64,000 nucleotides of DNA, taken from Streptomyces sp. ALI-76-A. Its GTDB lineage: Bacteria; Actinomycetota; Actinomycetes; Streptomycetales; Streptomycetaceae. How positions within the stretch are numbered: position 1 is the first letter of the stretch; each line of letters begins with the position of its first letter. Below, piece after piece: positions 35,701 to 46,282 of this stretch. The position numbers and the translations under genes were made by a program. The notes below the pieces were generated by a model. It did not search any database and was not told where the DNA came from. It saw nothing but the letters and a program-made list of their open reading frames with translations. The stretch spans positions 5,580,001 to 5,644,000 of the forward strand of contig NZ_JASVWB010000002.1 in NCBI RefSeq assembly GCF_030287445.1. The letters are read 5' to 3'.

Positions 35701-35994
35701 GGCCAGGTCGGCGACGGTGGCCGCGACCGCCGCGACGCCCGCCACCAGCAGGGGCGTACCGCCGCCCTCCTGGGCGTACCGCTGCCCGAAGGTGAGCTGC
35801 CCCGCCTTCGCCTCGTCCAGCGCGCGCGTGTAGGCCTCGTACTCCTCCGCGGCGGTCTGCGCCATGGCGTCCAGCGATCCGCGCGCCCGCGACAGCAGCA
35901 CACCACCCTCGATCCGCCCGCCGGAGCGCCGCACCTCCTCCTCCACGGCCCGCGCCAACAGCCGTTCGGCCTCCGCACGATGACTGTCCCGCAT
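32791..35994 (-). CDS. Membrane-associated STAND/NB-ARC ATPase with TPR repeats
   Basis: A 1,067-residue signal-transduction ATPase. Residues 1-80 are helical; about 81-99 and 103-128 are hydrophobic Ala/Gly/Val-rich segments that could span the membrane. The NB-ARC core has Walker A GVSGSGRTT (246-254), Walker B TIVLDDAS (near 333-341), a GLPL motif (CGGLPLALRVAGS) and the winged-helix block YRVHELVRAFAQARLL. The C-terminal half is about ten TPR-like repeats, many beginning GEAW. Unlike AfsR/SARP proteins it has no DNA-binding domain, so its output is not evident. ATG 35994 has GGAGGGGG 7 nt upstream. STAND proteins act as ligand-triggered switches, including in phage defence. Confidence 0.88.
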   Translation of the reverse strand: MRDSHRAEAERLLARAVEEEVRRSGGRIEGGVLLSRARGSLDAMAQTAAEEYEAYTRALDEAKAGQLTFGQRYAQEGGGTPLLVAGVAAVAATVADLALGTGAGTALGAGLAVGVVGAVATVVKVAGVHLPAAHHRAGAISQPGGPEQLRLQWLTALEVRGIRPFLDQQRVLSASTGPKKAGPRLKGSDKSAAARGRSVLEQSFGQLPEPVGPFAGRRQEMARIRQWVQASRAATETRPTVVVLHGVSGSGRTTLAVRAAHDLKDYFRGACVVDLRGAGSDEQPLSTRDALLHLLNRLGAPREQLLFRERSSADQQVKRLSELYHQHLTGLPVTIVLDDASDPEQVRTLVPDRSDSLVLVTCREPLTLPADLAAQVHHLPVEALDAPGAEELLGACAEDSSGPYDAESTDRIRELCGGLPLALRVAGSALGPRSPRRLAVDLGAYGPVAPAERVLWLRYTDQSEPARRLLRRLALAGRSSLGAAAAAALLGTDETEATRHLVALARAGLIDHVRGSRYRVHELVRAFAQARLLDEEEPAERTAAQERLIVNYGELADSVLRLVDGNMSTRSDRFSPHGFHSLDEALRWLDDESSFITAALRHAEGVNQEAVLNLLGALCDYCLLRGDLYRLGEISELAQAVDQGLLVRSVQWRTGIAARQLGELDKARTTLTSVVDLYMEAHHDAGAARALCSLGITLHHQGNLTEAAARLREALDLQAAPGLATDRAWTMHALAAVERDRAHLSEALGLLEESLVLHRAGESVHGEAWAHFQLGQLGLRMGDVPRAERELRTALDLYGRTRDARGEAWALTQLARARLVAGDAGAALDALHGAAARHRDNEDARGEAWTVYYLGQALEETGDLDQAVRALERSRTMFSRMRDVYGLACARHHSARATRDQRAAQTGSLRNSGFARQLLVDARADFQRIGVAHGEAWTCLELAVVDAGNARTPQALALCDEAIGLFTSYGDRRGEDWARFLRCTLLPYAAPGGVEVGTAVALEELAQLARAGHPVRDEKLDDYVGAYRLLLERGVSLEAGWQAWRLGMVPGRHAREVMGVAVTASRA

Positions 35995-36151
35995 GTCACG
36001 TCCCCCTCCGGCGGCAACTCCTCTGCCCAGCAGTGTCCTTCGGCGGATGCGGGAGCGCGAGGGGGTGGCGATCAACGAATCCGAATCGGTGACCTTCGGA
36101 TCACTCGATCGTTCTTGTGGCTGTCGGGCTGACTGTCGAACTGGGGGCGCT

Positions 36152-37441
36152 GTGAACGACCTTGTCGTGGGTGAGCGGACCGGATTGATCCCGGTCGCGT
36201 CCTACGCCCGTACATCGGAGGACTTCCGGCGCAGAGATGGTCATGGCGTGCGTCATCAGAAGCGGATCAACCAGCGGACCGCGCATGAACACGGCTGCAC
36301 CGTCGTCGCCGAATACGCCGACAACGGCCGAAGTGCGTCCAAGGCCGGGGTGGACAGACCTGGTTTCGACCGCTTGCTCGTGGATCTGGTGCGGGGGCGT
36401 ACCGAGAGCGGACTGCGGATCGAAGGGGTGGTGTGCGTCGCCGACGACCGCCTGTACCGCCGTGCCGAGGACCTGTACCGGTTCCTCGCCGCCCTGACCT
36501 GCTCGCCGGGACGGATCTACGTCGATCCGCGAGGAGTCCGGGACCCGTACTCGCGGGAGGGCTTGTCGGAGGCTGTGCGATCACTGGACGCGGCAGTGAC
36601 GGAAACACGAGTCAGAAGCCGCCGTGTGTCGGACTGGCACTGGGCTCGCGCCATGGAGGGGGTGCCGCACAGCGGACCTCGACCCTTCGGATGGCAGGAG
36701 GACAGAATCAGCCTCCACCCCGTGGAAGCGAAGCTGGTCGAGCAGGCGATGGTCGACCGCATGTCGGGGAAGGCGGTCCGGGCCATCGCGCGTGACTGGT
36801 GCGAGCAGGGGGTCACGGGCACTCGAGGCGGCAGACCCAATGGCCAGACGGTCACACAGATCATCACCGCACCGAGAGTGTGCGGTTACCGGGCCAACAG
36901 AGGTCAACTGCTTCTGGTCTCGGAGACGGGTGAACCAGTGCTCGGTCAGTGGAAGCCCATCGCGACCCCTGAGCAGTGGCACGCGGTGTGCGCCACCATC
37001 TCTCCCGGGAGTCTGTTCATGCACCGGGGCAGCGGCTCCCCGAGTCTCACCGGCAGAAGCCGAGCCGCCCCCCGTCACCTCGGCACGGGCTTTCTCCGAT
37101 GCGGGGCAAAGAGCCCTGATGGTCCGGTGTGCCACGGTGCTCTGTGTGCTCAGAGAGGAAGAAGCAAGCAGAGTCCATACGTGTATTCATGCCGCAGTTG
37201 CGGGAGATGCAGCATCAGTGGCCCACTCGCGGACGCGGCTCTTGAACGCCTGCTCCTTGCCGACGCTCACTTCTCCACGGCGCTGCCGGAGGCCACGCGG
37301 CAGCGGTGGCAGTCCGGAGAGATGGGCCTGGAAGAGAAGCGGAAGACTCTCGCGTCGGTCTTCACTCACTGTGTCGTCCGGCCCGGTGCGAAAGGGAAGC
37401 ACTCCTGGGACTACTCGCGTGTCCAGCCTGCATGGCGTTGA
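36152..37441 (+). CDS. Serine recombinase (integrase/resolvase superfamily)
   Basis: A 429-residue site-specific recombinase. The catalytic domain has the nucleophile region SYARTSEDF, the block DNGRSASKAGVDRPGFDRLL and DDRLYRRAED; a recombinase domain (GPRPFGWQ, AKLVEQAMVD, ITAPRVCGYRANRG) and a zinc ribbon (FLRCGAK and CRSCGRC) follow. It is shorter than most large serine integrases and has little coiled coil at the end. GTG 36152 follows a GGGG-type site; upstream residues are not family-like. Codon use (AGA, AGT, TCA, TAT, CCA) differs from its neighbours, pointing to transfer. No excisionase, replication or phage genes accompany it, so it may be the last gene of a decayed element. Confidence 0.88.
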   Translation: MNDLVVGERTGLIPVASYARTSEDFRRRDGHGVRHQKRINQRTAHEHGCTVVAEYADNGRSASKAGVDRPGFDRLLVDLVRGRTESGLRIEGVVCVADDRLYRRAEDLYRFLAALTCSPGRIYVDPRGVRDPYSREGLSEAVRSLDAAVTETRVRSRRVSDWHWARAMEGVPHSGPRPFGWQEDRISLHPVEAKLVEQAMVDRMSGKAVRAIARDWCEQGVTGTRGGRPNGQTVTQIITAPRVCGYRANRGQLLLVSETGEPVLGQWKPIATPEQWHAVCATISPGSLFMHRGSGSPSLTGRSRAAPRHLGTGFLRCGAKSPDGPVCHGALCAQRGRSKQSPYVYSCRSCGRCSISGPLADAALERLLLADAHFSTALPEATRQRWQSGEMGLEEKRKTLASVFTHCVVRPGAKGKHSWDYSRVQPAWR

Positions 37442-39700: not shown

Positions 39701-41023
39701 GTGGCGGACGTGGCAGTCCGTCGCGCCAGGGGGTTTGGGATCTGGGGGGATCTGTTGCTGACGTCTGTCTTGATCGCTGCTGTTTCGCTTGCCCTGTTCT
39801 GGATGGCGGCCTTCACTCTGTGGTGGCAGATGCACGCGTGGCGTACGCCCGAGGTGCTCGCCTCCACGCGCTTCCACGCACCGGACGGCGGGGAGAGCCT
39901 GTCGTTCTCGCTGCTGCTTCCGGCGCGCCACGAACAGGCCGTGCTCGACCACACCATCCAGCGGCTGCTGGAGTCGAGCCACACCGACTTCGAGATCATC
40001 GTGATCGTCGGACACGACGACCCGGAGACCACGGCGGTCGCCTGTGACGCGGCGGACCGTGACCCGCGGGTGCGGGTCGTCGTGGACACCCACGAGAAGA
40101 AGAACAAGCCGAAGGCCATGAACACCGCGCTCCCGCACTGCCGCGGAGACGTGGTCGGGGTCTTCGACGCCGAGGACCAGGTCCATCCCGAGCTGCTCGC
40201 GCACGTCGACCACGCGTTCCGGACCACCGGCGCGGACGTCGTCCAGGGCGGTGTCCAGCTGATCAACTTCCACTCCAGCTGGTACAGCCTGCGCAACTGC
40301 CTGGAGTACTTCTTCTGGTTCCGCTCGCGGCTGCACCTGCACGCGCAGAAAGGATTCATTCCGCTCGGCGGCAACACCGTCTTCGTCCGCACCGACGTGC
40401 TGCGGGAGGCCGACGGCTGGGATCCCGACTGCCTCGCCGAGGACTGCGACCTGGGCGTGCGCCTGTCGAGCGTCGGCAAGAAGGTCGTCGTCGCCTACGA
40501 CTCCGACATGGTGACCAAGGAGGAGACCCCCGGTTCGCTGATGTCGCTGCTGAAGCAGCGCACCCGCTGGAACCAGGGCTTCCTCCAGGTGTACCGGAAG
40601 AAGGACTGGAAGCAACTGCCGGGATTCGGCCAGCGGCTGCTGGCCCGCTACACCCTCATGACGCCGTTCATGCAGGCCTTCACCGGCGTGATCATCCCGC
40701 TCAACGTGGCCGTCGCGCTCTTCCTCGACGTGCCCGTCAGCATCGCCTTCATCACCTTCCTGCCGCTCGTCACCGCCATGGTGACCTTCGTCTTCGAGGT
40801 CGTCGGGCTGCACGACTTCGGCAAGCAGTACGGCCTGCGGGTGCGCTTCGTGCACTACCTCAAGCTCGTCGTGGGCGGCCCCTTCTACCAGGTGCTCCTC
40901 GCCGGCGCCGCCATCCGCGCCGTCTGGCGCGAGCACCGCGGCCGCAACGACTGGGAGCTGACCACTCATGTCGGCGCGCATCTCACACCGTCCGAAGTGA
41001 CCCGAGAGGACGTCCCCGCGTGA
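39701..41023 (+). CDS. Processive family 2 glycosyltransferase, membrane-bound
   Basis: A 440-residue inner-membrane enzyme that should polymerise or transfer sugars from a nucleotide-sugar donor. It has an N-terminal span (LLTSVLIAAVSLALFWMAAF), a cytoplasmic GT-A domain and two to three C-terminal spans. The processive-type motifs are present: DTHEKKNKPKAMNTAL, FDAEDQ (DxD), EDCDLG and QRTRW (Q/RxxRW), as in cellulose and hyaluronan synthases. GTG 39701 or 39710 could be the start. It is first in a four-gene coupled operon (GT39, GT2-GtrA and copper oxidase downstream), so the product is probably an exported glycan. The sugar specificity is unknown. Confidence 0.9.
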   Translation: MADVAVRRARGFGIWGDLLLTSVLIAAVSLALFWMAAFTLWWQMHAWRTPEVLASTRFHAPDGGESLSFSLLLPARHEQAVLDHTIQRLLESSHTDFEIIVIVGHDDPETTAVACDAADRDPRVRVVVDTHEKKNKPKAMNTALPHCRGDVVGVFDAEDQVHPELLAHVDHAFRTTGADVVQGGVQLINFHSSWYSLRNCLEYFFWFRSRLHLHAQKGFIPLGGNTVFVRTDVLREADGWDPDCLAEDCDLGVRLSSVGKKVVVAYDSDMVTKEETPGSLMSLLKQRTRWNQGFLQVYRKKDWKQLPGFGQRLLARYTLMTPFMQAFTGVIIPLNVAVALFLDVPVSIAFITFLPLVTAMVTFVFEVVGLHDFGKQYGLRVRFVHYLKLVVGGPFYQVLLAGAAIRAVWREHRGRNDWELTTHVGAHLTPSEVTREDVPA

Positions 41024-42678
41024 CCTCCACCCTTCCCGCGGTGACCACTCCTACGGTCCCCGCGCAGCGGCAGCCTGCGCCCGCGCCCGCTCCGGCCGGG
41101 CGGAACGTTCCGCCCAGCCGACTGCGCTCCTCCCGCCCCGACCTGCTGCTGTGCGGTCTGCTCCTGGTGGCGATCCTGGTCGTCCAGGGCTGGAACATCG
41201 CCGACTACCCGACGCTCAGCGACGACGAGGGCACCTACCTCGCCCAGGCCTGGGCGGTCCAGGAGGGCAGGGGGCTGGCGCACTACACCTACTGGTACGA
41301 CCACCCGCCGCTCGGCTGGATCCAGATCGCCGTGCTGACCTGGATACCCTCGATGATCAGCCCCGAGTCGATGACCGTCGGCTCGATGCGCGCGATGATG
41401 CTGGTCGTCAGCGGCATCAGCGCGGTGCTGGTCTACGTGCTGGGCCGCCGGCTGTCCCTGCCCCGCTGGGCCGCGGGGCTCGGCATGGTCCTGTTCGGGC
41501 TCTCCCCGCTGTCCGTCGTCCTCCAGCGGGAGATCTTCCTCGACAACCTCGCGGTGATGTGGACGCTGCTCGCGTTCACCCTCGCCGCCTCCCCGAGCCG
41601 TCACCTCTGGCACCACTTCGGAGCGGGCATCGCGGCGGCCACCGCCGTGCTCACCAAGGAGACGATGCTGGTCGTCCTGCCCGCGCTGCTGGTCACCATG
41701 TGGCGGCACAGCCACCGGGACACCCGCAAGTTCGCGGTCACCGGCGCCATCACCGCCTGCGTGCTGATCGGCTTCTCGTACCCCCTCTTCGCCCTCCTCA
41801 AGGGCGAGCTGCTGCCCGGCGGCGGGCACGTCTCCCTCTGGGACGGCGTCAAGTACCAGATGACGCGGCCCGGTTCGGGGTTCATCCTCGACCAGGGCTC
41901 CGGTTCGCACGGTGTCTTCCAGTCGTGGCTGTACTACGACCGGGTGCTGCCGCTGGGCGGCCTGGCCGGCGCGCTCCTGCTGCTGGCCACCTGGCGCTGG
42001 TCGGTCACCGCCCGCGCGCTGGCCGGGCCGGCGCTGACGGTGGCGATCCTCGCCGCGCTGGCCCTGCGCCCCAACGGCTACCTGCCCGCGATGTACGTCA
42101 TCCAGGCGCTGCCCTTCCTCGCCCTGGTCCTCGCCGGGGGCACCGCCTCCGTCGCCCACGCCGTGCTGCGCAGGTGGCGGGCGGAAGGGGAGAAACGATT
42201 GGTCACCGGCGGGCGGTACGCCCTCGCGGCGGTCCTCGCCGTCGCCGCCGGCGCCTACGTCGTACCGAAGTGGTACGACGGCGCCCGCACCGCCGTCACC
42301 GTCGACGCCAACGCCCCCTACCAGGCCGCCTCGAAGTGGCTCGCCACGGAGGTGGCGGACCCCGAGGACACGCGGGTGCTCGTCGACGACGCGATGTGGC
42401 TGGACCTGGTGCACGCCGGGTACCGGCCCGGGCTCGGTGTCATCTGGTTCTACAAGGCCGACCTCGACCCCGCGGTGACCAAGACCATGCCGCGCGGCTG
42501 GAAGGACATCGACTACGTGGTCGCCTCGCCGACGGTACGGCGGGACGCGGTCGACCTGCCCAACGTCAGGGCGGCCATCCAGCACTCGACACCGGTCGCC
42601 GTCTTCGGCACCGGTGCGGACCGGATCGAGATCCGGCAGATCCAGACCACCGGCACCGCCGTGGGAGGCGTCCGATGA
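41020..42678 (+). CDS. GT39-like membrane glycosyltransferase
   Basis: A 552-residue polytopic protein of the ArnT/PMT type (GT39/GT83, GT-C fold). It has about ten hydrophobic spans and, in the first external loop, the acidic motif LSDDEGTYLAQAW that binds the polyprenyl-phosphate sugar donor, then YWYDHPPLGW. Such enzymes transfer a sugar from a lipid-linked donor outside the membrane. Its GTG overlaps the upstream GT2 stop and its own stop overlaps the next ATG, so the genes are tightly coupled. The GT2-GtrA enzyme downstream probably makes its lipid-linked donor. Confidence 0.9.
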   Translation: MTSTLPAVTTPTVPAQRQPAPAPAPAGRNVPPSRLRSSRPDLLLCGLLLVAILVVQGWNIADYPTLSDDEGTYLAQAWAVQEGRGLAHYTYWYDHPPLGWIQIAVLTWIPSMISPESMTVGSMRAMMLVVSGISAVLVYVLGRRLSLPRWAAGLGMVLFGLSPLSVVLQREIFLDNLAVMWTLLAFTLAASPSRHLWHHFGAGIAAATAVLTKETMLVVLPALLVTMWRHSHRDTRKFAVTGAITACVLIGFSYPLFALLKGELLPGGGHVSLWDGVKYQMTRPGSGFILDQGSGSHGVFQSWLYYDRVLPLGGLAGALLLLATWRWSVTARALAGPALTVAILAALALRPNGYLPAMYVIQALPFLALVLAGGTASVAHAVLRRWRAEGEKRLVTGGRYALAAVLAVAAGAYVVPKWYDGARTAVTVDANAPYQAASKWLATEVADPEDTRVLVDDAMWLDLVHAGYRPGLGVIWFYKADLDPAVTKTMPRGWKDIDYVVASPTVRRDAVDLPNVRAAIQHSTPVAVFGTGADRIEIRQIQTTGTAVGGVR

Positions 42679-43868
42679 GCCAGGAATCCATCGTCCCCAA
42701 GGGACTCGACGATCCGGCCGTACACGCTGTCGAGGTGCCGGAGCCGGGCGCCGTCACCATCGTGGTGCCGACCTTCAACGAGTCCGCCAACATCCGCGAA
42801 CTCCTGCACCTGATCACCGCGTCGGTGCCCTCCCGGCTGCCCTGCGAGGTGGTCTTCGTGGACGACTCCACGGACGACACCCCCCAGGTCATCCACGAGG
42901 CGGCCAAGGACTGCCCCTTCCCGGTCACCGTCCTGCACCGGGAGGAGCCGGTCGGCGGGCTCGGCGGTGCCGTCGTCGAGGGCATCAAGGCGGCCTCGTC
43001 CGACTGGGTCGTCGTCATGGACGGCGACTGCCAGCACCCGCCCTCGCTGGTACCGGAGCTGGTGGCCACCGGGGAGCGGTCGGGCGCCGGGCTGGTCGTC
43101 GCCTCCCGCTACATCAAGGGCGGCAGCCGTGCCGGACTGGCGGGCAACTACCGGGTGGCCGTCTCGCGCGGCGCGACCTGGCTGACCAAGTCGCTCTTCC
43201 CGCGCAAGCTGCACGGCATCAGCGACCCGATGAGCGGCTTCTTCGCGATCCGCCGCAGCGCGGTCACCGCCGACGTGCTCCAGCCGCTCGGCTACAAGAT
43301 CCTCCTGGAACTCGCCGTCCGCAGCCGCCCGCGCCAGGTCACCGAGGTGCCGTTCGTCTTCCAGGACCGGTTCGCGGGTGAGTCCAAGTCCAGCGCCCAG
43401 GAGGGCCTGCGCTTCCTGCGCCACCTGGTCGGCCTGCGCTCCGCCTCCCCGGTCGCCCGCATGATCGGCTTCGGCCTGATCGGCGCGACCGGGTTCGTGC
43501 CGAACCTGCTCGGCCTGTGGGCCCTCACCGCGGGCGGCCTGCACTACATACCGGCCGAGATCCTCGCCAACCAGCTCGGCGTGGCCTGGAACTTCGTCCT
43601 CATCGAGCATCTGCTCTTCCGCGACCGGCGGCGGCACCGGCGGTGGTGGGACCGCGCCGGGCGGTTCGCGCTGCTCGCCAACGCGGACCTGGTGCTGCGT
43701 ATCCCGCTGATCGCGCTGTTCGTCCACCGGCTCGGCATGGGCGTGCTGTCCGCGACCGCGCTCGCCCTGGTGACGACCTTCGTCCTGCGCTTCGTGGCGA
43801 CCGAAGCGCTGGTTTATCTGCCGCGCAGGGGGCTGCGCGGGAGCAGCACAGCTAGGAGAGCCGTGTGA
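42675..43868 (+). CDS. Polyprenyl-phosphate glycosyltransferase with GtrA domain
   Basis: A 397-residue fusion. Residues 25-260 form a DPM1-like GT2 domain (VTIVVPTFNESANI, VVFVDDSTDD, VVMDGDCQHPPSL), which loads a sugar onto polyprenyl phosphate at the cytoplasmic face. Residues 265-390 form a four-span GtrA module (MIGFGLIGATGFVPNLLGLW, LANQLGVAWNFVLIEHLLF) thought to flip the lipid-linked sugar. Its ATG overlaps the GT39 stop, and the following oxidase start overlaps its own stop. It is the natural donor supplier for the neighbouring GT39 enzyme. Confidence 0.92.
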   Translation: MSQESIVPKGLDDPAVHAVEVPEPGAVTIVVPTFNESANIRELLHLITASVPSRLPCEVVFVDDSTDDTPQVIHEAAKDCPFPVTVLHREEPVGGLGGAVVEGIKAASSDWVVVMDGDCQHPPSLVPELVATGERSGAGLVVASRYIKGGSRAGLAGNYRVAVSRGATWLTKSLFPRKLHGISDPMSGFFAIRRSAVTADVLQPLGYKILLELAVRSRPRQVTEVPFVFQDRFAGESKSSAQEGLRFLRHLVGLRSASPVARMIGFGLIGATGFVPNLLGLWALTAGGLHYIPAEILANQLGVAWNFVLIEHLLFRDRRRHRRWWDRAGRFALLANADLVLRIPLIALFVHRLGMGVLSATALALVTTFVLRFVATEALVYLPRRGLRGSSTARRAV

Positions 43869-46282
43869 AAAGACGTCAGCTGTCCAGATACCGAAGAAGA
43901 ACCGCACTCGTCGGGGTGGGGGCACTCACCGCCGGCCTCCTCCTCACCTCACCCCAGTCCGCCACCGCCGCCAACCTTGTGAAGAACGCCGGCTTCGAGA
44001 CCGCCGGCACCGGTGACATGCCGTACTGCTGGGAGAAGTCCGGCTGGGGGGACAACGACTTCACCTTCTCGACCGTGGGCGACGCCCACACCGGCTCCAA
44101 GGCGATGAAGGTCGAGCTCACCCGCCGTGCCGACGGCGACCGCAAGGCGTTGATCACGGAGTCCGCCGAGTGCGCGCCGGTCGTGTCGGCGGGCAAGCAG
44201 TACGACCTCGGGCTCTGGTACAAGTCGACCACCCCGGACACCTCGCTCACCCTGTTCCGGCACGACACGACCGCCGGCTGGCAGTACTGGACCGACCTGA
44301 AGACGCTGGAGATGGCCGGGAACTGGACCGAGGCCACCGTCCGCACCCCGGAGGTCCCGGCCGGCACCGACCGCATCACCTGGGGCGTGTCCGTGTACGG
44401 CACGGGCTCGGTCACCACCGACGACTACACGATGGACCAGGTCGCCGACCCGGTACCGGACCCGGTGTGCACGGGCACGCCCGCGGAGTGTGCCAACGGC
44501 AGGTGGGACGTGCTGCCCACGGAGAACCCGGTGCGTTCCATGCACTCCGTCGTCCTCCACAACGGCAAGGTGCTGCTGATCGCGGGCTCCGGCAACAGCG
44601 AGGAGCAGTTCGAGGCGGGCACGTTCACCTCCGCGGTGTACGACCCGGTCAAGGGCACCTACAAGGTCATCCCCACGCCGAAGGACATGTTCTGCGCCGG
44701 GCACGTGCAGCTCCAGGACGGGCGCGTGCTGGTGATGAGCGGCAACAAGGCGTACCCGGTGCCGGGCGGGCACGGCTACGAGGGCTACAAGGACTCGTAC
44801 ATCTTCGACCCGGCCACCGAGAAGTACATCAAGACCAACGACATGAACGACGGGCACTGGTACCCGTCGGCGACCGCCCTCGGCAACGGTGACGTCATCT
44901 CCTTCGGCGGGCTGCGCGAGGACTCGACCGGCTCGGTGGCCGCCGAGCTGTGGTCGGACGCGGAGCAGCAGTGGCTGCCGCTGTGGAAGGTCAACCAGAC
45001 CTGGTCGTACTGGGGTCTGTATCCGTCGATGATCCTGATGCAGGACGGCCGGCTGTTCTACTCGGGCAGCCATGTCTTCGGCAACAACATCCCGGGCACC
45101 GGGTCGGCGATCTACGACTACGACGCCAACACCATCACCCAGATCCCGGGTCTGCAGAACAAGGACCAGCGCGACCAGTCGGCGAGCGTGCTGCTGCCCC
45201 CGGCGCAGGACCAGAAGGTCCTCACCATCGGCGGCGGCAACATCGACTCCAACCCGGACGCCAACCGGCTGACCGACGTCATCGACCTCAAGACCGCCGA
45301 CCCGTCCTACGTCGCCGGCCCGCCGCTGCCGCAGGGCACCGTCGACCTCGGCAACGGCAAGGTTCCGCAGACCGGAAACCAGGGCAAGATGTACGTCTCC
45401 GCCGTGCTGCTGCCCGACGGCACGGTGCTGGAGACCGGCGGCGCCCTCCACAACCGGGCCGACCCGGTCTACGAGTCGTCGATCTACGACCCCGCGACCA
45501 ACACCTTCGACCCGGTGGCCGCCGACCCCGAGGCGCGCGGCTACCACTCGTCCTCGTTCCTGCTGCCGGACGGCCGGGTGATGTCGACCGGTGACAACCC
45601 GGGCAACGGCTCCTGGAACCACGACGTGTCGATCTACACGCCGCCGTATCTGCTCAAGGGCCCGCGTCCGTCGATCACCTCGGTGATCGACACCGAGTGG
45701 AACTACGGCGACACCCAGCGGATCACCGTCGACCGGCCCATCGCCAAGGCCGAGCTGATCCGTCCGGCCGCCGTCACCCACTCCTCGGACCCGAACCAGC
45801 GGTTCGTGGACCTGCCGCTGTCGGTGGACGGCGGCAACATCGACCTGAACGTGACGAGCAACCCCAACCTGGCGCCGCCCGGCTGGTACATGCTCTTCGC
45901 GGTCGACGCCAACGGTGTGCCGTCCGTGGCCGAGTGGGTGCACCTCCAGGGCCCGCAGGCGCTCGGCGCCACCGACGCCTCGGCGCACGTCCACTCCTTC
46001 GCCGACTCGCCCGACGGCACCGTCACCGGGCCCGGCAAGAAGCGGACCTCGCAGAAGGTCAGCCCGACCGTCTCCGGCTGCGACCGGCACTACGGCTCGA
46101 TCAACGTCTGTGTGCCGACCACGTTCCCGGACGAGGTGCGGGACACCACGGTGGCCCGCTGCGCCTGGCTGAAGGCGAACGACTACGGCCGTCTGAAGGT
46201 CAACGGCAAGGACGACCCGCTCAAGCTCGACCGGAACAAGGACGGGATCGCCTGCGGAAAGGCTGACGTGCGCAAGCGCTAG
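43865..46282 (+). CDS. Secreted copper-radical oxidase (galactose/glyoxal oxidase-like) with Excalibur tail
   Basis: An exported oxidase of 805 residues. A twin-basic signal peptide (MKRRQLSRYRRRTALVG, cleavage near SATAA) precedes a carbohydrate-binding-like domain (40-195), kelch repeats and a DUF1929 C-terminal domain. The copper-radical residues are recognisable: Cys in DMFCAGHV and Tyr in GHWYPSATAL (the expected thioether pair), axial Tyr-His in ARGYHSSSFLLPDGRV and the last His in VTHSSDPNQR. Such enzymes oxidise alcohols or aldehydes with O2, yielding H2O2. The final 60 residues form an Excalibur-type calcium motif (DRNKDGIACG). GTG 43865 overlaps the GT2-GtrA stop. It differs from GlxA in having this tail and this operon; the substrate is probably the glycan made by the operon. 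Confidence 0.9.
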   Translation: MKRRQLSRYRRRTALVGVGALTAGLLLTSPQSATAANLVKNAGFETAGTGDMPYCWEKSGWGDNDFTFSTVGDAHTGSKAMKVELTRRADGDRKALITESAECAPVVSAGKQYDLGLWYKSTTPDTSLTLFRHDTTAGWQYWTDLKTLEMAGNWTEATVRTPEVPAGTDRITWGVSVYGTGSVTTDDYTMDQVADPVPDPVCTGTPAECANGRWDVLPTENPVRSMHSVVLHNGKVLLIAGSGNSEEQFEAGTFTSAVYDPVKGTYKVIPTPKDMFCAGHVQLQDGRVLVMSGNKAYPVPGGHGYEGYKDSYIFDPATEKYIKTNDMNDGHWYPSATALGNGDVISFGGLREDSTGSVAAELWSDAEQQWLPLWKVNQTWSYWGLYPSMILMQDGRLFYSGSHVFGNNIPGTGSAIYDYDANTITQIPGLQNKDQRDQSASVLLPPAQDQKVLTIGGGNIDSNPDANRLTDVIDLKTADPSYVAGPPLPQGTVDLGNGKVPQTGNQGKMYVSAVLLPDGTVLETGGALHNRADPVYESSIYDPATNTFDPVAADPEARGYHSSSFLLPDGRVMSTGDNPGNGSWNHDVSIYTPPYLLKGPRPSITSVIDTEWNYGDTQRITVDRPIAKAELIRPAAVTHSSDPNQRFVDLPLSVDGGNIDLNVTSNPNLAPPGWYMLFAVDANGVPSVAEWVHLQGPQALGATDASAHVHSFADSPDGTVTGPGKKRTSQKVSPTVSGCDRHYGSINVCVPTTFPDEVRDTTVARCAWLKANDYGRLKVNGKDDPLKLDRNKDGIACGKADVRKR

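What the first reader, a model, noticed from the sequence alone, without database searches (positions are those of the whole stretch)
39701..46282. Four-gene coupled operon: glycan synthase, lipid-linked sugar pathway and secreted copper-radical oxidase
A processive GT2 with a QRTRW motif, a GT39-like transferase, a GT2-GtrA donor enzyme and an exported galactose/glyoxal-oxidase-like protein overlap by 4 bp at every junction. The oxidase keeps the Cys-Tyr pair, the Tyr-His pair and the last His, and carries an Excalibur tail not expected in GlxA. The known Streptomyces CslA-GlxA pair makes a tip glycan. This operon adds a polyprenyl-linked branch, which suggests a second, decorated surface glycan oxidised outside the cell.
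Basis: partly seen in the sequence, partly recalled or inferred. Interest (0 to 1): 0.72.

Follow-up and report, generated by a model that had tools for sequence, protein, structure and literature searches.

The report
Second copper-oxidase surface glycan operon
A Streptomyces operon appears to build a sugar polymer, add side sugars outside the cell and oxidise it with a secreted copper enzyme; the same gene set, reshuffled, recurs in distant soil bacteria and is separate from the known cellulose-like tip system.

Summary
In detail: four genes (GT2 synthase, GT-C/GT39-like, fused GtrB-GtrA-type enzyme, secreted AA5 copper radical oxidase) overlap by 4 bp at all three junctions. The oxidase keeps all five cofactor residues and the stacking Trp. 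It is not a cslA-glxA duplicate: that locus lies elsewhere in the same genome, and the oxidase lacks the roughly 115-residue GlxA insert and scores half the GlxA cut-off.
(2) The four families cluster in another order in seven of seven inspected loci of a nifH-bearing (probably Frankia) family, at 37-53% identity, with PA14 in place of the CBM4_9-like domain. (3) A SCO1/SenC copper chaperone gene lies between oxidase and GT2 in nine loci of two families (not in the window). (4) The "Excalibur tail" is a fused form of a small exported protein encoded separately elsewhere.
Best reading: a second oxidase-coupled surface-glycan machine with a three-component side-chain module. Polymer, side sugar and oxidation product are inferred.

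The parts
39701..41023 (+). GT2 family glycosyltransferase (440 aa), putative processive beta-glycan synthase; DAED 156-159, ED 247-248, QRTRW 286-290; no PilZ hit; real start may be TTG 39755 (by eye)
41020..42678 (+). GT-C (GT39/PMT-like) membrane glycosyltransferase (552 aa), DDE motif at residues 68-70, DHPPLGW 94-100, about 10 hydrophobic segments by a crude hydropathy scan
42675..43868 (+). Polyprenyl-phosphate sugar synthase (GT2, residues 28-197) fused to GtrA/DPMS transmembrane domain (266-380)
   Evidence: (5mlz E 6e-53)
43865..46282 (+). AA5-type copper radical oxidase with export-signal-like N-terminus (805 aa)
43970..44338 (+). N-terminal CBM_4_9-like domain (residues 36-158), below the Pfam cut-off
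   Evidence: 16.8 bits, cut-off 25.9
44486..45664 (+). AA5 catalytic propeller (residues 208-600), no GlxA insert between residues 298 and 304
44693..44695 (+). C277, cross-link cysteine
44858..44863 (+). W332 (stacking) and Y333 (cross-linked copper ligand)
45542..45547 (+). Y560-H561 copper ligands
45665..45943 (+). GO-like E-set domain (601-693)
45779..45781 (+). H639, last copper ligand
46070..46279 (+). Fused Cys-rich/Excalibur-like module (GCD..CVP..CAWL..DRNKDGIAC); a separate neighbour gene in other genera

Best explanation
The operon encodes a second oxidase-coupled surface-glycan machine, separate from CslA-GlxA. Inferred steps: (1) the GT2 polymerises a beta-type backbone and extrudes it; (2) the GT2-GtrA protein charges polyprenyl phosphate with a hexose and its GtrA part flips it; (3) the GT39-like GT-C enzyme adds that sugar to the chain outside the membrane; (4) the secreted oxidase, held on glycan by its N-terminal carbohydrate-binding domain and metallated by the SCO1 pathway, oxidises a primary alcohol (backbone or side-chain C6) to an aldehyde, releasing H2O2, so the glycan can cross-link or anchor; (5) the Cys-rich/Excalibur-like module is a wall or calcium-dependent retention part. 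Shown here by sequence: gene set, motifs, co-occurrence, recurrent clustering, SCO1 linkage, module fusion. Not shown: sugars, linkage, polymer, oxidation product, localisation.
For: Six active-site residues kept in 103 of 104 orthologue rows over 600 bits, one row truncated; invariant in the 64-row alignment A2 and in 39 of 39 rows including f90. GT2 motifs invariant in 101 of 101 rows over 400 bits; in 38 wider rows Q, R, R, W, D156, E158 and ED 247-248 are kept in 38, T288 in 37, D159 in 31. The A1 profile matches BcsA (4hg6) at 2.5e-13 over profile positions 52-355. Fused GT2-GtrA matches 5mlz at 6e-53. Co-occurrence 69 of 199 (from 17, 27, 28). Reordered quartet in 7 of 7 inspected f90 loci, SCO1 gene between oxidase and GT2 in all 7 and in L151 and L173; f90 quartet oxidases carry PA14, 7 of 7. 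Tail module separate from the oxidase in L148, L149, L151, L171, L172, L173 and the f90 loci. Distances of GT2, GT39 and oxidase correlate at r 0.96-0.98, against 0.44-0.68 with flanking DsbH-like or PEPCK, 16 of 38 loci. A paralogous GT2-GT39 pair (43-44% / 27-29%) sits with GH5 (7 of 7) and GH6 (6 of 7) genes.
Against: GT2 is only 22% identical to CslA and its best PDB match, by single sequence and by profile, is the non-cellulose 6yv7; the product may not be a long polymer. GT2-GtrA was not found in 5 of 70 genomes, so the side-chain branch may be fed by another enzyme or be optional. One of nine loci from other genera of the family (L172) shows no GT gene within the 14 kb fetched, and five more distant actinobacterial oxidases (L160-L164, 33-37%) show none in the stretches fetched. 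SCO1 was seen in 9 of 47 sources searched and not in the window. CBM and Excalibur hits are below Pfam cut-offs. No GH gene was identified beside this operon among the flanking genes tested. f90 GT2s are about equally far from the operon GT2s and the paralogue clade (tree unresolved). No structure model.
Confidence: 0.6

Rival explanations
1. The GT39-like enzyme and GT2-GtrA glycosylate secreted proteins (PMT-like), and the oxidase modifies the glycoprotein sugars or simply makes H2O2 outside; GT2 makes a glycolipid or short oligosaccharide.
For: The only Pfam hits of the GT-C gene are PMT/PMT_2; GT2 aligns best to the non-cellulose 6yv7.
Against: Acceptor cannot be read from PMT-clan membership. 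QxxRW and ED invariant; A1 profile reaches BcsA across the GT domain. Oxidases carry N-terminal domains of two kinds often found in carbohydrate-binding proteins.
Confidence: 0.2
2. As proposed for GlxA in the CslA-GlxA complex, the oxidase is chiefly a synthase partner needed for polymer assembly, and oxidation is secondary.
For: CslA-GlxA form a complex that makes cellulose (PMC11022532, start of abstract and passages); correlated divergence of GT2 and oxidase.
Against: The oxidase has a signal-peptide-like N-terminus (by eye) and no hydrophobic segment at the threshold used, unlike the TM anchor reported for GlxA; active site conserved.
Confidence: 0.15
3. A duplicated or diverged cslA-glxA locus with the same cellulose-like product.
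For: Oxidase is closest in PDB to GlxA.
Against: A cslA-glxA locus with GH6-like and LPMO genes is at C2:3579000-3597000 of the same genome; GT2 22% identical to that CslA; NCBIfam GlxA 413.7 against cut-off 800.
Confidence: 0.05

Closest known systems
CslA-GlxA cellulose synthase complex of Streptomyces (SCO2836-SCO2837)
   Same: GT2 synthase gene and AA5 copper radical oxidase gene side by side with a 4-bp overlap (L178); same cofactor residues; sco linkage reported for Frankia clusters (PMC4736821 passage)
   Different: GT2 22% identical to CslA and no PilZ hit; oxidase without the GlxA insert, with CBM4_9-like N-terminus and Cys/Excalibur-like module; extra GT-C and GtrB-GtrA genes
Three-component extracytoplasmic glycosylation systems (GtrB-GtrA-GT-C)
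   Same: polyprenyl-phosphate sugar synthase, GtrA flippase domain, GT-C enzyme (PMC11127046 passages)
   Different: GtrB and GtrA fused; partnered with a QxxRW synthase and a copper oxidase
Fungal and bacterial AA5 galactose and glyoxal oxidases
   Same: Cys-Tyr, Tyr, His, His ligands; kelch propeller and E-set
   Different: Trp next to the cross-linked Tyr as in GlxA (also glyoxal oxidase, recalled); glycan-synthesis operon
BcsA cellulose synthase / PgaC-type PNAG synthase
   Same: GT domain, ED and QxxRW, C-terminal hydrophobic segments
   Different: far below the NCBIfam cut-offs; no PilZ hit

Membership tests
AA5 copper radical oxidase | Cys-Tyr cofactor, axial Tyr, two His | tested here: met
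   alignment to 4unm; 103 of 104 orthologue rows. Alignment only, no structure model
AA5 copper radical oxidase | Copper binding, radical formation, H2O2 release | not testable with these tools
   needs protein
GlxA equivalog (NF052501) | score over the curated cut-off 800 | tested here: not met
   413.7 bits
GlxA equivalog (NF052501) | GlxA insert after the first blades | tested here: not met
   query 298-304 spans chain 112-230 of 4unm
GlxA equivalog (NF052501) | N-terminal TM anchor | tested here: inconclusive
   no segment over the threshold; signal-peptide-like N-terminus by eye only
CslA (cslA-glxA locus) | GT2 close to CslA, PilZ elements, GH6 neighbour | tested here: not met
   22% identity; no PilZ hit and no GH hit in the flanking genes tested
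Processive GT2 synthase | D, DxD-like, (E)D, QxxRW motifs and C-terminal TM helices | tested here: met
   hydrophobic segments by crude scan
Processive GT2 synthase | Polymerisation and secretion of a glycan | not testable with these tools
   needs assay
Three-component glycosylation system | GtrB-type polyprenyl-P sugar synthase | tested here: met
   Pfam and 5mlz; first D of DxD kept in 31 of 31, second in 29 of 31
Three-component glycosylation system | GtrA flippase domain | tested here: met
   PF04138 59.9 bits, cut-off 26.1
Three-component glycosylation system | GT-C enzyme with acidic loop-1 motif | tested here: met
   PMT 36.2 bits, cut-off 22.7; D69-E70 in 37 of 38, one match not covering. 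The f90 relative in L196 scores 22.0, just under the cut-off
Three-component glycosylation system | Transfer to a glycan rather than protein or lipid | not testable with these tools
   needs biochemistry
Excalibur domain (PF05901) | Pfam gathering score 22 | tested here: not met
   16.6 bits, 17.5 in L148, no hit in L151 and L171; motif itself present in the window

The most novel reading that the evidence does not exclude
A distinct actinobacterial class of glycan machine, present in Streptomycetaceae and probably Frankiaceae, in which a synthase-made chain receives a polyprenyl-linked side sugar outside the membrane and a copper radical oxidase then turns its primary alcohols into aldehydes that covalently cross-link the hyphal surface. 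A Cys-rich/Excalibur-like partner, fused or separate, would be part of the same complex, and the published 'Frankia cslA-glxA-sco' cluster would in fact be this system.
Probability: 0.35. Interest if true: 0.78.

Novelty: new variant of a known kind. Interest (0 to 1): 0.6.

Why it matters
Copper-dependent morphogenesis in Streptomyces is explained in the papers seen here through one radical oxidase, GlxA. A second, separately conserved oxidase-glycan operon, found in 70 of 199 sampled genomes of the genus and beside a cslA-glxA locus in the window's own genome, would add a second copper target and a source of aldehyde-bearing surface glycan. PMC3543389 (section 5 read) reports a single galactose-oxidase-like gene in S. 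coelicolor, so the standard model strain would lack it. It gives a clean genetic test: delete the operon in a strain that holds both systems. It also offers bacterial copper oxidases paired with their likely synthase and side-chain enzymes.

Tried and rejected
Rejected: duplicate of cslA-glxA. Rejected: strict four-gene unit; GT2-GtrA has no match at 1e-50 in G002, G021, G035, G073 and G111 (G073 is highly fragmented), and in L143, L145, L146 it is present but it and GT2 point away from GT39 and oxidase. Rejected: twin-arginine export as a conserved trait (A2 consensus keeps one Arg only). Considered and not shown: that f90 GT2s are closer to operon GT2s than to the paralogue clade (one search leaves it open and warns of long branches). 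The first conservation counts (cysteine; motifs) were off by one position; corrected. Rows dropped: nine oxidase rows under 600 bits (L160, L163, L164, L165 keep all six residues; L161, L162 and GlxA itself, L178, read otherwise in that pairwise alignment; L166, L175 are fragments) and eight GT2 rows under 400 bits (seven paralogues and the fragment in L175). A phylum search (396 genomes) gave only five matches outside the genus at 1e-60, none with an operon GT gene in the stretch fetched. Named Actinoplanes and Rugosimonospora oxidases appear, but I could not fetch their neighbourhoods. PMC13390465 (abstract and passages) describes an Actinoplanes GtrA cluster; 'galactose oxidase' and 'copper' do not occur in it. 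Literature searches listed no paper that I could recognise as describing this operon; I saw listings plus passages of a few, and subscription journals are mostly not held.
Full report
OBSERVATION. The window is part of a 9.69 Mb genome; its closest named relatives are Streptomyces. The four ORFs and the three 4-bp overlaps are as described. Families: GT2; PMT/PMT_2 GT-C; GT2 plus GtrA; glyoxal-oxidase N-terminus plus GO-like E-set. The oxidase's best solved relative is 4unm (E 1.6e-93; that 4unm is S. lividans GlxA is recalled). From that alignment C277, W332, Y333, Y560, H561 and H639 correspond to the GlxA motifs; the roles of the residues are recalled from AA5 literature. The first GT2 codon is uncertain: most orthologue matches start at query residues 7-20, and the L151 gene starts near residue 19 (by eye).

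NOT cslA-glxA. The same genome holds a cslA-glxA locus with a 4-bp overlap, a GH6-like gene and an LPMO gene (L178). The operon oxidase scores 413.7 against the GlxA cut-off of 800 and lacks an insert of about 115 residues. GT2 is 22% identical to that CslA over 312 positions.

CONSERVATION IN THE GENUS. Of the 80 best loci kept out of 326, 78 hold all four genes in one order and strand; L065 and L116 hold only part, at one end of short contigs. In 199 genomes sampled evenly from the genus (the window's own included), the oxidase, GT39 and GT2 orthologues are each in 70, and all three in 69; the exceptions G152 and G073 are assemblies of over 1000 contigs. The lists were copied by hand with bit cut-offs of about 600, 400 and 600; weaker matches (GlxA, the paralogous pair, fragments) were left out. 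Of the 70 genomes with GT2 and GT39, 65 also have the GT2-GtrA gene at 1e-50, and six genomes have it without them. G124 keeps fragments of the GT39 and oxidase genes between the usual flanking genes, and G043 fragments of GT2 and oxidase genes, so the set also seems to be lost together.

REARRANGED AND PARTIAL FORMS. In a diverged group (L143, L145, L146, L150, L174) GT2 and GT2-GtrA point away from GT39-oxidase, yet all four stay together; L144 and L168 have that layout without a GT2-GtrA hit. In its genus members (L143-L146, L168) the flanking genes that matched are 80-88% identical to the window's, while the operon genes are 48-66%. Across 16 loci with both control genes, distances of GT2, GT39 and oxidase correlate at 0.96-0.98 with one another but at 0.44-0.68 with DsbH-like or PEPCK (22 of 38 loci lacked a control gene and were not used; over all 38 the three correlate at 0.89-0.94). 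I read this as exchange or long co-evolution of the set as a block. A family search found matches in nine genomes of other genera (23 of 150 in all). I read all nine: six hold all four genes (L148-L151, L173 with GT2-GtrA cut by the stretch, L174), two lack GT2-GtrA (L147, L171), and L172 shows the oxidase alone in 14 kb.

ANOTHER FAMILY. A class-wide search (246 genomes) with an Actinoplanes oxidase gave 19 genomes with matches at 1e-100: nine in the genus and ten in one other family, f90. I inspected seven of the ten (L195-L201). All seven have GT2-GtrA, oxidase, GT2 and GT39 relatives within about 10 kb, in that order, at 43-46, 49-53, 38-40 and 37-40% identity in the best match. L195 and L199 have a further oxidase copy (57-59%). 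In these loci a SCO1/SenC copper chaperone gene lies between oxidase and GT2 (7 of 7 by tblastn; Pfam over cut-off in the three tested). The same holds in L151 and L173 of the window's own family. No other of the 47 sources searched had it, the window included; the window genome's one SCO1 gene is elsewhere (C2:4544588). In S. lividans the chaperone Sco is required for GlxA maturation at low copper (PMC4736821, passages), and that paper notes that in Frankia the cslA-glxA cluster is next to sco. If f90 is Frankia, that cluster is probably this system: the quartet oxidases are 49-53% identical to the operon oxidase but 32-35% to GlxA over their long match (46-47% over a 91-residue piece in L197, L198 and L200; L195-L198 and L200 read). 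The SCO1 link is therefore not new in itself.

OXIDASE EXTRAS. The N-terminal domain resembles CBM_4_9 below the cut-off; the f90 quartet oxidases carry PA14 instead (7 of 7). The C-terminal tail, GCD..CVP..CAWL..DRNKDGIAC, is fused in Streptomyces (the oxidase match runs to residue 801 or beyond in 80 of 80 genome-contig loci). It is separate from, and next to, the oxidase in L148, L149, L151, L171, L172, L173 and the f90 quartets. In the three f90 versions read beside the quartet (L195, L196, L198) the calcium-type motif is lost; near the extra oxidase in L195 and L199 a fuller copy matches. Fusion versus adjacency suggests that this module works with the oxidase. The Excalibur hit itself is below the cut-off.

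GT2 AND ITS PARALOGUE. The profile of 49 relatives reaches BcsA over the GT domain and QxxRW (E 2.5e-13), but the best hit is 6yv7, mainly in its N-terminal part. A paralogous GT2-GT39 pair in seven loci (43-44% and 27-29% identity) is flanked by GH5 (7 of 7) and GH6 (6 of 7) genes, a subtilase, a membrane protein with Ig-like repeats (by eye) and a PAS kinase (Pfam for the flanking enzymes on L154 only; the others by tblastn). This favours a beta-glucan-like product for the GT2 clade, by association only. No GH family was hit in the flanking genes of our operon that I tested.

MECHANISM. Following CslA-GlxA (cellulose made by the complex, PMC11022532, start of abstract and passages) and three-component glycosylation (PMC11127046, passages), I propose: backbone by GT2, side sugar by GT2-GtrA plus GT-C, oxidation by the secreted oxidase, aldehyde-based cross-linking. 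The roles of the four genes follow from family knowledge; acceptor, sugar and product are inference. GT2-GtrA is the dispensable member, so its donor may be supplied elsewhere in some strains.

VERDICT. Real, conserved, distinct from cslA-glxA and, in the open-access text searched, not found described. A new variant of a known kind.

Noticed in passing
L154 6645-11331 (also L155-L159, L176): A paralogous GT2-GT39 pair followed by an acidic membrane protein with Ig-like repeats (by eye), beside subtilase, GH6 (not matched in L155), GH5, response regulator and PAS histidine kinase genes; possibly another glucan locus, literature not searched.
   Followed up: partly
L143-L146, L168 against the window: Diverged operon (48-66% identity, GT2 inverted) with 80-88% identical flanking genes of the same kinds, suggesting replacement of the operon as a block at one chromosomal site.
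   Followed up: partly
L166 7004-7827; L175 4823-6360; L167 8603-11031: Remnants of the operon in G124 and G043, and an oxidase gene in two pieces in G142: the set seems to decay together.
   Followed up: no
L202 6923-8194; L203 7384-8580; L204 7563-8735: GT2-GtrA homologues (58-69% identity) without the rest of the operon in the stretches read.
   Followed up: no
L195 9736-10968: A 410-residue exported-looking protein between two oxidase genes in the f90 locus (also in L199), no Pfam hit at 0.01; could be glycoside-hydrolase-like by eye.
   Followed up: no
L165 7493-9925: A second oxidase in G128 (39% identity, repeats in front that look FG-GAP-like by eye) with all six residues kept and no operon GT hit in the stretch.
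   Followed up: no
window 35993-37441: Serine recombinase gene two genes upstream of the operon.
   Followed up: no
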